Assembly (NCBI GenBank): GCA_009778875.1
Contig: WRFI01000003.1
Coordinates: 1 to 37,266, forward strand
Direction of reading: 5' to 3'
Source of the DNA: Propionibacteriaceae bacterium
GTDB lineage: Bacteria > Actinomycetota > Actinomycetes > Propionibacteriales > Propionibacteriaceae
DNA: 37,266 nt
The notes under the pieces are model-generated. The model was given only the letters and a program-made list of their open reading frames with translations, was not told the DNA's origin and made no database searches. Shown in pieces: positions 13,181 through 24,396 of this stretch (positions are counted from its first letter, which is position 1; every line of letters starts with the position of its first letter). The position numbers and the translations under genes were made by a program.

Positions 13181-14437
13181 CTACGGGAAGACCACCTTCA
13201 GCAGGAAACGCAGGATTCGGTCGTCCACCGGGCCCCCCTTCGGGGCCACCAGGCCGGCCATCATCTTGTTGACCACCCGCATCACCGACTTGTTGGGCAA
13301 GCCATACTTCAGGCAGGCGGCCAGGATGGTTGGGTTGCCCATCAGCTTGGTGAACGCCGCGCCGCCGCGATAGTAGCGTCCCACCTGCGCCTTGACGCGC
13401 CAGTGGTAACCCTGCAAGGCCTGCTCACCGGCCGGGGTGCCGAACCCGGCGGCCTTGGCGGCAGCCGCCGCCTGGCCCGCCCAAGTGCCCGACTCCAAAC
13501 CCCACGACACGCCTTCGCCGTCATACGGGCTGACGAGGCCCGCCGCATCGCCCGCCAGAAGCGTGCCGTTGCGGTAGACGACCTGGCGATTCAGCCCCAT
13601 CGGCAACGCGGCGCTCTGAACCTCCGGTTTGTTGGTCGGTGTGCCATCGGCGTCCACCCAGGTCATGCCCCACTGCGCGGGCAGCGTCTTGACCCAATCC
13701 TGCAGCATCGCCTTGTGGTCCGTCCGTCCGAAACTGGCGCCCGTGGAAAGCTGCCCGATGCCGACGTTGTACAACCCCTCACCCATCGGGAACACCCAGC
13801 CGTAGCCGACCAGACGGGTGGCGCTTCGCGAATCCGGCTCGGGCATCGCCATCCACGAGTGCAGGTACTTTTCGTCCGGCAGGATGCCACACGCCCGCAT
13901 GTAGCCGCGCGCCGCCACGCCCATCGGGGTGTGCGTCAGGCGGGGCATGCCGGCCGGGACGCCGAGACGCGCCGCCGCCCCCGTCGCGTCGATGACAACC
14001 GGCGCCAGCCAGATCTCGCCACCGCCGCTGACGCCAATCACCCGATCACCGTCAGTGATCGGACCATGGATGGCCACACCGAGGCGAACCTTCGCACCGG
14101 CCGCCTCGGCCGCCTGCAGCATGAAGTAGTCGAACTCGCTGCGGCGCACCGTGCACGACAGTGTCGGCAATCCGGACGAGGCCGGCCACTCGAACACAAA
14201 CGGGCCGTTGTGGTCACCGTAAACGGCGATGCCCTGCGACCTGTGCCAGTGATCTGGTATCTCCAGGCCCAAGGCCGCCAGCGCCCCCACAGCCCGGGGC
14301 GTCAACGCATCGCCGCAGGTTTTTTCGCGGGGCATCTGCGCCGCCTTGTCGATGAGAAGTACATCAAGGCCGGCGCGGGCCGCCGTCATTGCCGCCGCGC
14401 AGCCAGACGGACCCGCGCCCACCACTATCACATCCAT
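13181..14437 (-). CDS. Geranylgeranyl reductase family FAD protein, likely menaquinone reductase (MenJ-like)
   Basis: FAD-dependent enzyme of 418 residues. The N-terminal dinucleotide fold has VVGAGPSGCAAA (G7-x-G9-xx-G12). REKTCGDAL at 37-45 is the family's second signature, and LLAGDAAGLVSPYDGEGV at about 294-310 is the FAD-binding GD motif with the family-specific continuation. Members reduce isoprenoid chains; in mycobacteria MenJ (Rv0561c) saturates one isoprene unit of menaquinone. The position upstream of nuo fits a role in making the quinone that complex I reduces. The ATG at 14437 is 18 bp after the sigma-factor stop; no clear ribosome-binding site is visible, so it may be translated by coupling. 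The family is secure; the exact substrate is inferred. Confidence 0.88.
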   Translation of the reverse strand: MDVIVVGAGPSGCAAAMTAARAGLDVLLIDKAAQMPREKTCGDALTPRAVGALAALGLEIPDHWHRSQGIAVYGDHNGPFVFEWPASSGLPTLSCTVRRSEFDYFMLQAAEAAGAKVRLGVAIHGPITDGDRVIGVSGGGEIWLAPVVIDATGAAARLGVPAGMPRLTHTPMGVAARGYMRACGILPDEKYLHSWMAMPEPDSRSATRLVGYGWVFPMGEGLYNVGIGQLSTGASFGRTDHKAMLQDWVKTLPAQWGMTWVDADGTPTNKPEVQSAALPMGLNRQVVYRNGTLLAGDAAGLVSPYDGEGVSWGLESGTWAGQAAAAAKAAGFGTPAGEQALQGYHWRVKAQVGRYYRGGAAFTKLMGNPTILAACLKYGLPNKSVMRVVNKMMAGLVAPKGGPVDDRILRFLLKVVFP

Positions 14438-14455: not shown

Positions 14456-15787
14456 TCACGGGCAATGAGTGAACGGTCCGCTGGGCCACGGGCCGTACCA
14501 CTGGTCTGAGCCAGTGCACTGCGACCCGTCAGTGATCCACGGCACGCTCGGGGCGACGGTGGCCGTCGTGGGGGGCGGCGTCGCGGTGGACGGCGCAGGT
14601 GGTTGCGTGACGGGCTGGTCGACCGGCGGTTGCGTGGTCGTGGTTGGCGGACGCGTCGTGGTCGATGTCGTCGGCGGCGTCGTGGACGGTGTCTCCGTCG
14701 TCGGAGTTTCGGTGATGGACGGCTCGGGCGTCGTGGTGGTTGTGGATGGCGCAGGCATCGTCTGCGAAGCGACGGGCGGTGGCACCGGGGCGTTTGGCTT
14801 GACCAGGCTGCTTATGCCCAAAGCCGCCGCGCCGACAACGGCCACAATAGCAACACCGATCCCCACCATGGCAGCACCGGAGAGGCCACCCCCGCTGGCC
14901 GCCCCAGCGGACGCCCCGCCCGCTGACCCGCCGGATGCGCCGCCTGCCGAACCCGCTGTGCCTGACCCTGAACCGGTGCCAGCGCCGGAAGCCGCCGCAG
15001 CACCCCCGGCTGCGGCGGCACCGGCCGCCAACATAATGCTGGCAGGCATCGATGGCGGATTGACTATCACAGAGGCTGAGGCCCAATTCGCTCCCGCCAC
15101 TGCGGCTTGAGCCACCGTCAGCCCGGCCACCCCGCCGAGCAGGTGGCGGCCCAAGGCGGTTGTCACCTTGGGCTTGGACGCTGCCTGGGACACCCCAGAC
15201 GGCGGCCTTGCCTGTCCCTCGTCTTCACTCACGTCGTCTCCCGAATTGTTGATTTCCCCCATGTAAAGCTTGCGGAACGATTCCTTCGACCGCATGATGA
15301 GCACCGAAGCGTGTCGGGCGTCGATGCCCAGCGCCTCGCCGATTTCCGCTGGCTTGTACCCCTCGACGGCGCTGAGCCACAGCACCGTCCTGTAGCGCTG
15401 GTTGAGCGCATAAAAGCACCGTGCCACCAAGTCATCCTCGGTGTTAGGTTCGTCCAACTGCGGCGCTGCCACTTCATCGGCGGCATCCAGCGGCTGGTCG
15501 GAATGCAAAACCCTGTCCCAAGCCACCGTGCGGATGGTGGCATAAAGATAGGCCCGGAAATTGGTGGACGGGCCCCGCCCGTCATTGAGCGATCGCCAGA
15601 TTCTGGCGTACGCATCGGTGACAACTTCGTCAGCGTCGAAACCGCGTCCTCCGACCCGCGTTTTGGCATAGTTGAACGCCGACGCGTAATACCGCGTCCA
15701 TAGCGTTTCGAATGCTCCATCGACACCATCCCTGACCCTCTCAACCAGGGTAGCGTCGTCTAGCAATGCCAATTCGTCCATGGCCAC
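14456..15787 (-). CDS. ECF-type sigma factor fused to a transmembrane helix and Thr/Pro-rich tail
   Basis: 443 residues. A sigma-70 region 2 spans about 10-95, with YAKTRVGGRGFDADEVVTDAYARIW typifying 2.2. Region 4 spans about 118-177, with the helix-turn-helix YKPAEIGEALGIDARHASVLIMRSKESFRK. The protein then continues: a weakly hydrophobic stretch (about 210-235), a Gly/Ala/Ser-only linker (about 255-303), a transmembrane helix (about 304-325, GAAMVGIGVAIVAVVGAAAL), a Thr/Pro-rich segment (about 330-415) and a terminal module with two cysteines (C424 and C442) and three tryptophans. The expected topology is sigma domains inside and tail outside. The GTG at 15787 or the in-frame ATG at 15781 could start it; neither has an ideal Shine-Dalgarno sequence. 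No separate anti-sigma gene adjoins. Actinobacterial ECF groups with C-terminal membrane extensions are known; I cannot assign this one. Confidence 0.85.
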   Translation of the reverse strand: MAMDELALLDDATLVERVRDGVDGAFETLWTRYYASAFNYAKTRVGGRGFDADEVVTDAYARIWRSLNDGRGPSTNFRAYLYATIRTVAWDRVLHSDQPLDAADEVAAPQLDEPNTEDDLVARCFYALNQRYRTVLWLSAVEGYKPAEIGEALGIDARHASVLIMRSKESFRKLYMGEINNSGDDVSEDEGQARPPSGVSQAASKPKVTTALGRHLLGGVAGLTVAQAAVAGANWASASVIVNPPSMPASIMLAAGAAAAGGAAAASGAGTGSGSGTAGSAGGASGGSAGGASAGAASGGGLSGAAMVGIGVAIVAVVGAAALGISSLVKPNAPVPPPVASQTMPAPSTTTTTPEPSITETPTTETPSTTPPTTSTTTRPPTTTTQPPVDQPVTQPPAPSTATPPPTTATVAPSVPWITDGSQCTGSDQWYGPWPSGPFTHCP

Positions 15788-15825
15788 CTGTCTGTTACCA
15801 CGAAGGCATTTCCATTACGCAGACG

Positions 15826-15854
15826 AGCTTACCCCGTATCGTCCAGATTGTCCT
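15826..15854 (-). promoter_or_regulatory. Candidate vegetative promoter of the sigma-factor gene
   Basis: On the minus strand AGGACA (-35, 15849-15854, four of six matches) is followed by a 17 bp spacer and TAAGCT (-10, 15826-15831). The -10 lies 38 bp before the GTG start, giving a short leader. No GGAAC-type ECF promoter is evident here, so autoregulation is not supported. Confidence 0.4.
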
Positions 15855-15942
15855 GCATTTCCTAAATTGCTCGTGTTCGCCTGAGTAGGTGACGCATTCC
15901 TGCCTCACCCGGCTCTCTCCCCGGGCGACTATGCACTATCCC

Positions 15943-15987
15943 CTACCACAACGCCTGCCTAGCCCTTAGCGGCCCACGGTGTGGTAG
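15943..15987. repeat. Inverted repeat in the alaA-sigma intergenic region
   Basis: CTACCACA (15943-15950) and TGTGGTAG (15980-15987) are perfect 8-bp inverted arms 29 bp apart. They lie in the 274 bp gap between alaA and the sigma gene, upstream of its candidate promoter. The same gap holds the GC-rich arms CCCGG/CCGGG and, close to the alaA stop, the weak hairpin arms GGGTG/CACCC (about 16015-16030) that might help end alaA transcription; no T-tract follows. It could be an operator or chance. Confidence 0.35.
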
Positions 15988-16061
15988 CACACACTTACAA
16001 AGACGGTCGGGGGGTGCGTTTCATAACACCCGGGGCAAAACTACCAAAGTGAAACTTCGCT

Positions 16062-20697: not shown

Positions 20698-22217
20698 TTG
20701 GCTTCTCCTGACGTCGGGGTGTCGGACGGTTTGAGGTTGCCCAGCCAGCGGGCCAGCCGGCCGCCGCGCCCCAGTTCGGCCAGGCGAGCCTCGACCCCCT
20801 CGCGGAGCTCCGCCGGCGTCACCACCAGCAGATCATCGCCGGCCCGCAGCTTGCTGTGACCGTGCGGCGCGAACGACTCGTCCCCCCGCATGACAAGGGC
20901 GATGACGACGTGCGGCGGCAACCGCAGCTCGCGCACGGCCAGGCCGGCCAGCTTGGAGCCCTGCGGCACCGAGACCTTCAACAGATCGGCCCGGCGCTCC
21001 TCCAAGGGGGCCACCTCGATGTCCAGGTCGAAGGGCGCCCAGGGGTCGATCAGGCCGAGCCGCTTCGCCACCCACGGCAGGGTTGGCGCCTGAATGGCCG
21101 TGAAGACGATGACGAACACGAAGACGATGCCGAACAGCAGGTGCGAGTCGGTGATACCCATGGCCAGCGGCACGGTCGCCAAGATGATCGGGACAGCGCC
21201 GCGCAGCCCCGCCCACGACAGAAACACCTGCTCACGCCACGGCACTTTGAACCAGACAGACGACACCCAAACGGTGATCGGGCGGGCCACCAGCGTCAAG
21301 AACAACCCGGCGACAACCGCCAAAAACAGGCTCTGCCAGGTGATGTGCTCGTGAACCGCCAGCAGGCCGAGCATGACGAACAAGCCGATCTGGGCGATCC
21401 AGCCCACTCCCTCGGCGAACGACCGGGTGGCGTGCCGGTGGGGCAGGTCGGCGTTGCCGAGCACCACCGCGCAGATGTAGACGGCCGCGAAGCCAGACAG
21501 GTGGATGACCGAGCCCAGACCGTAGGCCACCACAGCCCAGGCCAAAGTGGCGATCGGGTAGAGGCCGCTGGACGGCAGGGCGACGCGGCGCAGCAGACCG
21601 CGCCCGACCAGGCCGACGACCAATCCGAGCACCAGGCCACCGACCAACTCCAAGACGATCATGCCCGCCAATCCCCACGGCCCGCCCTCGGGCGGCGTGC
21701 CCATGACGTATTGGGTGGCCGCCACCACCAACAGGACGGTCGGCGCGTCGTTCAGGCCCGACTCGCCCTCCAGGGCGGCCATCACCCTGTGCGGCAGTGA
21801 CAGCCCGCGCAGCACCGAGAAGACGGCCGCCGCGTCGGTCGGTGCCGTGATGGCCCCCAGCAGAACCGCCACCCCGACGGGCAGACGCAGCACGTAGTAG
21901 CCGAACACGGCAACCAAGGCGATGGACACCAGAACCCCGAGCGTCGCCAGCACGGCGGCCAGGCCGATGTGGCTGCGAATGTCGCTCCACTTCGTTGTCA
22001 GGCCGCCTTCGGCCAGGATCAGCGCCAGCGCGATGAACCCCAGATCGTGCGCCATCTTGACGTTCTCAAAGTCGATGTTGACACCCAGCAACATTCCCAG
22101 CCCAAGGAAAAGCAGCAGGGCTGGCATGCCAATGCGGGCACCGAAGCGGGCCGTCACCACGGCGATCAGCACGATGACGGCACCGGCCAAAAAGAGGGTG
22201 TCGAGGCTCAATGACAT
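20694..22217 (-). CDS. CPA1-type potassium(or sodium)/proton antiporter with RCK_C domain (NhaP2-like)
   Basis: 507-residue inner-membrane antiporter. About 12 helices cover residues 7-390, with the CPA1 signatures LGAITAPTDAAAVFSVLRG (120-138) and EGESGLNDAPTVLL (150-163), whose N-D pair takes part in ion exchange. A soluble C-terminal part (about 410-490) contains GSKLAGLAVRELRLPPHVVIALVMRGDE and LRAGDDLLVVTP, the pattern of a TrkA-C/RCK_C regulatory domain. This architecture matches NhaP2/CvrA, K+/H+ antiporters; the cation cannot be fixed from sequence. The next gene downstream starts within its stop codon, so the antiporter and CoA-transferase are probably co-translated, perhaps tying acid production to pH or ion balance. 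Confidence 0.88.
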   Translation of the reverse strand: MSLSLDTLFLAGAVIVLIAVVTARFGARIGMPALLLFLGLGMLLGVNIDFENVKMAHDLGFIALALILAEGGLTTKWSDIRSHIGLAAVLATLGVLVSIALVAVFGYYVLRLPVGVAVLLGAITAPTDAAAVFSVLRGLSLPHRVMAALEGESGLNDAPTVLLVVAATQYVMGTPPEGGPWGLAGMIVLELVGGLVLGLVVGLVGRGLLRRVALPSSGLYPIATLAWAVVAYGLGSVIHLSGFAAVYICAVVLGNADLPHRHATRSFAEGVGWIAQIGLFVMLGLLAVHEHITWQSLFLAVVAGLFLTLVARPITVWVSSVWFKVPWREQVFLSWAGLRGAVPIILATVPLAMGITDSHLLFGIVFVFVIVFTAIQAPTLPWVAKRLGLIDPWAPFDLDIEVAPLEERRADLLKVSVPQGSKLAGLAVRELRLPPHVVIALVMRGDESFAPHGHSKLRAGDDLLVVTPAELREGVEARLAELGRGGRLARWLGNLKPSDTPTSGEAK

Positions 22218-22263
22218 CCGTCAATTATCCCATAGGCGGGTTGTGCGTCGGCGGAACCGGGAA

Positions 22264-22286
22264 TTCTCCTCCTAGAAGGGGAATGA
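22264..22286 (+). repeat. Half copy of the dispersed repeat between oppF and the antiporter gene
   Basis: CTCCTCC-TAGA-AGGGGAAT resembles hairpin 2 and the end of the dispersed element (CCCCTCC-AAA-GGAGGGGAAT), without hairpin 1. It lies in the 77 bp between the oppF stop (22295) and the antiporter start (22217). It may also slow transcription leaving oppF. Imperfect, so moderate confidence. Confidence 0.4.
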
Positions 22287-22294
22287 TACGGCGG

Positions 22295-23320
22295 TCAGCC
22301 TGCGAAATGGCAGGCGCTGCAATGGAACGACACGCCGTCGGGGCGATCGATCAGCTCGGGTTCCTCGTCAACGCAGACGGCCGGGACACCGTCCTTGACA
22401 TCCGTCGCGCCAAGGGCCGGCGCTTTCCAGCACCGCGTGTGGAAGCGGCAACCGCTGGGCGGGTTGGCCGGGCTGGGGACGTCGCCGGCCAGCATGATCT
22501 GCTGACGGGTGCCGCGCAGCGTCGGATCGGGCACCGGCACAGCCGACAACAGGGCCTGCGTGTACGGGTGGGTCGGGTGATCGTAGATCTGGGTCTCATC
22601 ACCCATTTCCACGATCTTGCCGAGGTACATGACGGCCACCCGGTCAGAGATGTGGCGCACCACCGCCAGGTCGTGGGCGATGAAGATGTAGGCCAGGCCA
22701 AGTTCTTTCTGAAGATGCTCCAGAAGGTTGACGACCTGGGCCTGAACGGACACGTCCAGCGCCGAGACGGGCTCGTCGCACACCAGCACTTTGGGGTTCA
22801 AGGCGATGCCGCGCGCCACGCCGATGCGCTGGCGCTGGCCGCCGGAAAACTGATGCGGATAGCGGTTGATGTGCTCTGGGCTGAGCCCCACGAGCTCGAG
22901 AAGCTCCTGCACCCTCGCCCGCCTCGACCCCTTGGGGACGGCCTCCGGGTGAATGTCGAAGGGCTCGCCGACGATGTCGCCGACCGTCTTGCGAGGGTTC
23001 AACGACGTGTAGGGATCCTGGAAGACGATCTGGATGTCGCGACGCAGGCGCCGCATGGCGGCACCGGTTTGCTGGTAGACGTCGACGCCGTCGAACAGGA
23101 CGGATCCGGCGGTCGGGTTTTCCAGGCTGACGAGCAGGCGGCCAAGCGTCGATTTGCCGCAGCCCGACTCGCCGACCACGCCGAGGGTTTCGCCGGCGTG
23201 AAGCTGGAACGACACGCCGTCGACGGCCCGCACATGGCCCGTGGTGTGCTGGATGACACCCGTCTTGATCGGGTAGTACTTGAAAAGGTCGATGGCCTCA
23301 AGGATGACTTCGCCGCTCAC
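22295..23320 (-). CDS. oppF: Oligopeptide ABC transporter ATP-binding protein (OppF/DppF type)
   Basis: 341-residue ATPase driving peptide import at the inner face of the membrane. Walker A is GESGCGKST (50-58), the ABC signature [10 protein letters not shown] is centred on 159-162, Walker B is [12 protein letters not shown] (178-189) and the H-loop is FIAHDL. The C-terminal Oligo_HPY region has [16 protein letters not shown] plus cysteines in [10 protein letters not shown]. The GTG at 23320 overlaps the oppD stop as GTGA, so it was chosen over a TTG two codons upstream. It is the last gene of the operon, reading oppA-B-C-D-F. Confidence 0.93.
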
Positions 23321-24396
23321 AGCCAACCCCCGATCTCATCGTCGACGCCCATGTCGTCCACCCGCTCGTCGGGTACGGGCTCGTCCACCCGCCAGTCGAC
23401 CACCGCCGTGTCGGCCACCCGCCAGCAGGCCGCGAACCGCGTCCCCTTGGCGTCCAGCGACTCCAACGGCGGCGGTGTGCCTTGACGGCACTGATCGACG
23501 GCAAACCGGCAGCGCGGGTTGAAGGGGCAGCCGCTGGGCATCGCCAGCAGGTTTGGCGGCAGCCCGCCGATGGCCGGCAACACGCCGCCCAGTTTGGTGT
23601 CGAGCCGCGGCACCGATTCCAGCAGGCCGATCGTGTAGGGGTGGCGCGGCTGGCCGTAGACATCGACGACCGGGGCCGTCTCAACCAAGCGTCCGGCATA
23701 CATGACCGCAATCCGGTCCGCCACGTTTGCCACCACGCCAAGATCGTGGGTGATGAGGATCAGGCCCATGTCGTGCTCGTCCTGAAGCTCCTTCAGCAGC
23801 GCCATGATCTGGGCTTGCACGGTGACGTCGAGGGCCGTCGTCGGCTCGTCGGCGATCAGGATCCACGGGTCCAAGGCGATGGCCATGGCGATCATGATGC
23901 GCTGTCTCATGCCGCCGGAGAACTGGTGCGGGTAGGCCTTGAAGCGCTGCCTGGCGGCCGGAATGCGCACCTGTTCCATCAGCGAGATGGCGGCCTTCAT
24001 GGCGTCCGAACTGTTGGTCTTGTGGTGGATGCGGAACATTTCGGCGATCTGCCAGCCGACCGGGAAAACCGGGTTGAGGGCGCTCAAGGCGTCCTGGAAA
24101 ATCATCGAAATCTTCGGCCCGCGCATGGCCGCCCGCTGCTTGCGCGACATTTTCAGCATGTCGACGCCCTGGAAAAGCACCTCGCCGCCGGTCACAAACC
24201 CGGGCGGGCTGTCAAGGATGCCCATGATGGCCTGCGCCGTCACTGACTTCCCCGAGCCCGACTCACCCAGGATGGCCAGGGTTTCCTTCTCGTCCAGATA
24301 GAACGAGACGCCGTTGATGGCCTTGGCGATGCCGGTGCGCATGCGGAACTCGACGTGCAAGTCGCGCACATCCAGCAGGTGGTCGTAGTCAGCCAT
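23317..24396 (-). CDS. oppD: Oligopeptide ABC transporter ATP-binding protein (OppD/DppD type)
   Basis: 359-residue ATPase partner of OppF. Walker A is GESGSGKS (44-51), the signature is FSGGMRQR (159-166), Walker B is [13 protein letters not shown] (178-190) and the H-loop H217 is in LITHDLG. The Oligo_HPY region follows [15 protein letters not shown]. Cysteines C290, C296, C303 and C324 form a cluster like that reported to hold [4Fe-4S] in a mycobacterial OppD; this is suggestive only. About 30 further residues are strongly acidic ([20 protein letters not shown]), an unusual extra tail. The ATG at 24396 follows the oppC stop by 3 bp and has a GAGGTGAGG box. Confidence 0.93.

What the first reader, a model, noticed from the sequence alone, without database searches (positions are those of the whole stretch)
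14456..15787. Sigma factor fused to its own transmembrane and exported mucin-like tail
Sigma regions 2 and 4 are intact, yet the polypeptide continues with a Gly/Ala/Ser linker, one membrane helix, about 85 residues of Thr/Pro-rich sequence and a Cys/Trp-containing end. No anti-sigma gene is adjacent. This predicts a one-component sensor: a sigma factor held at the membrane by its own tail and released by proteolysis when the outside domain senses something, or acting while tethered. Membrane-extended ECF groups are known in actinobacteria; the terminal Trp/Cys module here is not one I recognise.
Basis: partly seen in the sequence, partly recalled or inferred. Interest (0 to 1): 0.65.

Follow-up and report, generated by a model that had tools for sequence, protein, structure and literature searches.

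The report
Membrane-fused sigma factor missing its zinc-finger brake
This gene encodes a bacterial gene-switch protein (a sigma factor) fused to its own membrane anchor and outside tail; the architecture is known in actinobacteria, but this branch has lost the built-in zinc-finger brake while keeping a short element beside it and a tiny, almost unchanging tip, so it must be held and released in some other way.

Summary
An 81%-identical ortholog in another Propionibacteriaceae genome has the whole tail in the same gene order, and substitutions between the two show purifying selection across it, so there is no frameshift or misassembly. The general kind is known: actinobacterial ECF sigmas fused to an anti-sigma zinc finger (ZAS), membrane span, proline-rich stalk and exported domain (ECF48/52/53; SCO4117). 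That segment and the last 29 residues are the most constrained parts of the gene. The site-2 protease family that normally releases such factors was not found in the window's genome or five of six congeners, and the sixth's hit is atypical, which weakens the standard release model. Best reading: a ZAS-less variant held by its retained juxtamembrane segment, with a Cys-bounded cap as sensor. Mechanism is inferred.

The parts
14456..15787 (-). whole gene, 443 aa (GTG start; ATG two codons in)
   Evidence: ortholog L002:2953-4275, 81% identical over its full length
15509..15703 (-). sigma-70 region 2 (residues 29-93)
   Evidence: Pfam PF04542, 33.2 bits
15284..15424 (-). sigma-70 region 4 (residues 122-168)
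   Evidence: Pfam PF08281, 28.3 bits
15155..15262 (-). polar linker (residues 176-211) at the position where relatives carry the anti-sigma zinc finger; no Cys or His
   Evidence: zf-HC2 absent here and in L002, L005, L086; present in L092, L035 and L065
15035..15154 (-). retained juxtamembrane segment, residues 212-251 (LGxxLxxGVxGx...PxxMP), homologous to the segment after the zinc finger in sister proteins
   Evidence: alignment; shuffle z 5.4 vs L092, 6.0 vs L035, 6.9 vs L107; dN/dS 0.07 for 179-268
14873..15034 (-). Ala-rich then Gly/Ala/Ser-rich linker (residues 252-305)
   Evidence: sequence
14798..14872 (-). single membrane span (residues 306-330)
   Evidence: KD19 2.51, Hessa sum -0.49
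14546..14797 (-). exported-type Thr/Pro-rich stalk (residues 331-414)
   Evidence: 71% T+P+S; variable in length, dN/dS 0.20
14459..14545 (-). Cys-bounded, Trp-rich C-terminal cap (residues 415-443; C424 and C442)
   Evidence: 1 amino-acid change against 8 silent codon changes in 29 codons versus the ortholog
15788..16061 (-). leader between the aminotransferase and the sigma gene, 74% identical to the ortholog's over aligned bases, with a conserved inverted repeat at about 15889-15908
   Evidence: no Rfam match
13181..14437 (-). downstream neighbour, geranylgeranyl-reductase-family enzyme 18 bp after the sigma stop, followed by the nuo operon
   Evidence: NCBIfam TIGR02032 above its cut-off; same order in L002
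16062..17267 (-). upstream neighbour, class I/II aminotransferase; in three congeneric genomes it abuts the reductase gene with no sigma gene between

Best explanation
It is a one-component membrane-anchored ECF sigma factor of the actinobacterial fused sigma/anti-sigma kind, in a branch that has lost the zinc-binding anti-sigma bundle. Shown: intact sigma2 and sigma4, one membrane span, exported-type stalk, conserved cap, no ZAS, and a retained post-ZAS segment under strong purifying selection. Inferred: the N-terminal sigma domain is cytoplasmic and the C-terminal tail is outside. The retained juxtamembrane segment sits where helix 4 of class I anti-sigma domains lies, the helix that grips sigma2. 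It acts, together with tethering, as the remaining cis brake, while the bundle that grips sigma4 is gone. The stalk and the Cys-bounded cap report an envelope state. Activation is by loosening of the juxtamembrane segment in the tethered protein, or by cleavage with a protease that is not a Rip1/RseP-type site-2 protease.
For: Sigma regions. The tail is real and conserved. Family with the ZAS layout in many actinobacteria. ZAS absent in window, L002, L005, L086 but above the Pfam cut-off in sister L092, which aligns to the window protein over 391 aa at E 2e-48. Window + L002 group with L092 (support 98/92) inside an otherwise ZAS-bearing tree. Post-ZAS segment homology. Strongest constraint on that segment and the cap. 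Helix 1-3 bundle binds sigma4 and helix 4 binds sigma2 in class I anti-sigmas: PMC7406223. M50 protease not found in six of seven genus genomes and atypical in the seventh, controls 14 of 14.
Against: No structure shows the juxtamembrane segment on the sigma domain; the AlphaFold model with two sequences was unusable (mean pLDDT 37.7). The dN/dS figures come from one pair of sequences, and the cap is only 29 codons. The genomes are 76-95% complete, so the missing protease is strong for the genus but not proof for this organism. The charges flanking the span do not themselves favour C-out (a lysine follows the span); topology rests on the cytoplasmic sigma domain and on L086, which has KKK before its span. 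No targets or activity are known.
Confidence: 0.5

Rival explanations
1. Ordinary ECF52-type receptor: the tail is cut outside and then inside the membrane (regulated intramembrane proteolysis) and the sigma domain is released, as proposed for SCO4117 and shown for IutY; loss of the zinc finger is a detail.
For: Published expectation for ECF48/52/53 and experimental precedent in IutY (PMC8999054); same overall layout.
Against: M50 profile negative in six of seven genus genomes with 14 of 14 controls positive, and the seventh hit is not Rip1-like. The zinc-finger domain thought to hold the sigma is absent.
Confidence: 0.25
2. With its brake gone the sigma is always on when made; the tail only anchors it, and control is at expression (own leader and promoter).
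For: ZAS lost; own 274-nt leader that is partly conserved; the membrane span and stalk are less constrained.
Against: The juxtamembrane segment and cap are the most constrained parts of the gene, unexpected for a passive anchor.
Confidence: 0.17
3. The inhibitor is supplied in trans: a separate anti-sigma protein elsewhere in the genome, or a partner protein, binds the sigma domain or the juxtamembrane segment.
For: The segment's conservation would also fit a partner-binding site.
Against: No anti-sigma gene among the window ORFs scanned; the rest of the genome was not searched for orphan anti-sigmas.
Confidence: 0.07
4. Artefact: frameshift, misassembly or pseudogene joining a sigma gene to a surface-protein tail.
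For: None found.
Against: Full-length ortholog in a second genome with the same gene order and purifying selection along the whole tail.
Confidence: 0.01

Closest known systems
ECF52 sigma factors (SCO4117 of Streptomyces coelicolor)
   Same: ECF sigma domain, then membrane span, Pro-rich exported stalk and a terminal exported module in one polypeptide; actinobacterial (PMC5826349).
   Different: SCO4117 has a zinc finger after sigma4 and a carbohydrate-binding domain at the end; the window protein has neither. Direct BLASTP against the ECF52-type protein L065 (zf-HC2 + NPCBM) finds no meaningful similarity; the link is by profile and architecture.
ECF48 and ECF53 groups
   Same: Actinobacterial sigma factors fused to membrane anti-sigma portions, one to two membrane helices (PMC8999054).
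L092 (Propionibacteriaceae genome G150), sister protein found here
   Same: 34% identical over 391 aa, E 2e-48; shares the post-ZAS segment, span and stalk.
   Different: Keeps the zinc finger (25.9 bits, cut-off 22.2) and ends in about 150 residues resembling the Ig-like ends of L005/L086, with no Pfam match of its own there, instead of a 29-residue cap.
IutY of Pseudomonas putida (ECF243)
   Same: Sigma factor fused to a membrane-bound anti-sigma portion; the only experimentally worked-out case of proteolytic release (PMC8999054).
   Different: Iron-starvation surface signalling with Prc and RseP cleavage; no homology of the tail was tested.

Membership tests
ECF sigma factor (sigma2 + sigma4, no sigma3) | Sigma70_r2 and Sigma70_r4_2 domains | tested here: met
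   33.2 and 28.3 bits, both above cut-off; profile matches solved ECF sigmas such as RpoE 1or7
ECF52-type fused sigma/anti-sigma | zinc finger (ZAS, zf-HC2) after sigma4 | tested here: not met
   no zf-HC2 and no HxxxCxxC in window, L002, L005 or L086; controls L092, L035 and L065 positive
ECF52-type fused sigma/anti-sigma | transmembrane region in the C-terminal extension | tested here: met
   one span at 306-330
ECF52-type fused sigma/anti-sigma | long Pro-rich exported extension | tested here: met
   84-residue Thr/Pro/Ser stalk; export inferred
ECF52-type fused sigma/anti-sigma | carbohydrate-binding module at the C-terminus | tested here: not met
   no Pfam match in the last 117 or 36 residues
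ECF48/52/53 groups | match to the published ECF group models | not testable with these tools
   ECF group HMMs are not in the libraries; the classification paper was not held
RIP-activated sigma system | site-2 protease (Peptidase_M50, Rip1/RseP type) in the genome | tested here: not met
   no match in the own genome (77% complete); 6 of 7 genus genomes negative; the G005 hit is atypical
RIP-activated sigma system | cleavage of the protein in vivo | not testable with these tools
   needs experiment

The most novel reading that the evidence does not exclude
A sigma factor that is switched while still attached to the membrane: with the sigma4-gripping zinc bundle deleted and no site-2 protease present, a single retained juxtamembrane segment on sigma2 is pulled on or off by a 29-residue, probably disulfide-bounded cap outside, so that transcription is started by a tethered holoenzyme.
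Probability: 0.2. Interest if true: 0.72.

Novelty: new variant of a known kind. Interest (0 to 1): 0.45.

Why it matters
In fused sigma/anti-sigma receptors the zinc-finger domain is assumed to be the brake and site-2 proteolysis the release. A natural branch that has dropped the zinc finger, in a genus where the usual protease is not found, separates these parts: it can show which element of a class I anti-sigma domain is enough to hold a sigma factor in cis, and whether release from the membrane is needed at all. At 443 aa with a 29-residue putative sensor it is also a compact one-protein envelope sensor to study.

Tried and rejected
Cap homologues: PDB hits at E 0.36 or worse, chance-level plasmid hits, no Pfam match. 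Riboswitch or known RNA in the leader: no Rfam match at E 5 or better; the leader fold is strong in L002 (z -4.9) but not in the window (z -1.3), so no claim is made. ECF-type promoter in the leader: a conserved TGAAACG...CGTC pair exists but is spaced about 4 nt too short, not claimed. A two-span topology was considered and rejected because the second hydrophobic stretch is not a span in L005 or L086. Single origin of ZAS loss: the best tree needs two changes, but one clade is not rejected (AU p 0.325), so the number of losses is left open.

Full report
What is there. The ORF window:14456-15787(-) encodes 443 aa. It holds sigma region 2 (29-93) and region 4 (122-168), both above the Pfam cut-offs, one clear membrane span (306-330) and a 71% Thr/Pro/Ser stalk (331-414), followed by a 29-residue end with two cysteines and three tryptophans.

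Is it real. A second Propionibacteriaceae genome (L002, the same protein as in G002) has an 81%-identical protein over the full length in the same gene order: HAD hydrolase, aminotransferase, sigma, geranylgeranyl-reductase-family enzyme, nuoA, nuoB. Codon by codon, dN/dS is 0.13 for the sigma domain, 0.07 for residues 179-268, 0.20-0.31 for the linker, span and stalk, and 0.05 for the last 29 residues. The frame is therefore translated and selected to its end. The two most constrained stretches are the juxtamembrane segment and the terminal cap. These figures rest on one pair of sequences.

What kind it is. Searches of relatives found many sigma proteins with long tails. Nearly all carry an HxxxCxxC zinc finger directly after sigma4, then a span and a Pro/Thr-rich stalk; three that look like Streptomyces proteins have such a tail, and L065 of them ends in an NPCBM domain, matching the published description of ECF52/SCO4117. 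Reviews predict that ECF48/52/53 proteins are released by proteolysis.

What is different. The window protein, L002, L005 (same genus) and L086 (another genus of the family) have no zinc finger: no zf-HC2 match and no HxxxCxxC motif, while L092 and L035 score above the zf-HC2 cut-off in the same scan. The closest ZAS-bearing protein, L092, aligns to the window protein over 391 aa at E 2e-48, with the zinc finger falling in a poorly matching, gapped stretch. In a tree of sigma domains, window and L002 group with L092 (98/92) inside a set that is otherwise ZAS-bearing. The ZAS was thus lost, once or twice; a single loss is not rejected (AU p 0.325). What replaces it is a polar linker of roughly 28-37 residues. 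What follows it is kept: residues 212-251 match the post-ZAS segment of L092, L035 and L107 with shuffle z-scores of 5.4, 6.0 and 6.9, and all four ZAS-less proteins share LGxxLxxGVxGx and PxxMP.

How it may work. In class I anti-sigma domains helices 1-3 form the bundle that binds sigma4, and helix 4, after a flexible linker, binds sigma2 (PMC7406223). By position the retained segment corresponds to helix 4. The best-supported inference is that this branch has dropped the sigma4 clamp and kept a sigma2-side element, with the membrane tether and cap providing input. This is not shown structurally; the model obtained was unusable.

Release. Peptidase_M50 was not found in the own genome or in five of six congeners, with all 14 control genomes positive. 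The single hit (G005) is a 302-aa frame that runs off the contig start, with no sign of a Rip1-type layout. If each genome lacked the gene only by incompleteness (completeness 76-95%), absence in all would be very unlikely (my estimate, on the order of one in a million, treating gaps as independent). Classical site-2 release is therefore doubtful here, though other proteases were not searched.

Genomic setting. In three congeners (G004, G005, G006) the aminotransferase gene runs directly into the reductase gene with no sigma gene; in the window and G002 about 1.6 kb (leader plus sigma gene) lies between them. The sigma gene was gained there or lost elsewhere; without an outgroup this is open. 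It lies 18 bp before the reductase and upstream of nuo, so co-transcription, and perhaps control, of that operon is possible but untested.

The cap. No homologue was found, but short ends with cysteines after the stalk recur in L026, L093, L027, L098 and L032. A minimal Cys-containing end is therefore a theme of the family rather than unique; by eye the sequences do not align with the window's.

Verdict. A real, intact, selected gene; a new variant of a known kind; mechanism inferred.

Noticed in passing
window:15788-16061: Leader between aminotransferase and sigma gene is 74% identical to the ortholog's and holds an inverted repeat (GTGAGGCA....TGCxTCAC, perfect in L002) and a conserved TGAAACG...CGTC block; no Rfam match.
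   Followed up: partly
window:14437-16062; L016, L017, L018: In three congeneric genomes the aminotransferase gene directly abuts or overlaps the reductase gene; the sigma gene with its leader sits in that junction only in the window and G002 among those seen.
   Followed up: partly
L055 (G005:C161): Only M50-family hit of the genus: an atypical 302-aa frame on a short stretch that looks AT-rich, possibly contamination or a different function.
   Followed up: partly
L005/L087 (G001:C189): The ZAS-less fused sigma of G001 lies downstream of a gene for a surface protein with TVTNTGN-type repeats and next to an M13-type metallopeptidase gene (by eye); different neighbourhood from the window.
   Followed up: no
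L013 (G013): A 305-aa frame with sigma domain plus zinc finger but no membrane span: a soluble sigma/anti-sigma fusion.
   Followed up: no
window:18307-19164 and 22211-23485: Long ORFs without any Pfam match at E 1e-4; the first looks like a multi-span membrane protein.
   Followed up: no
window:29165-34664: FhaA, second FHA protein, PP2C phosphatase, FtsW/RodA and penicillin-binding protein in a row, a typical actinobacterial cell-wall cluster.
   Followed up: no
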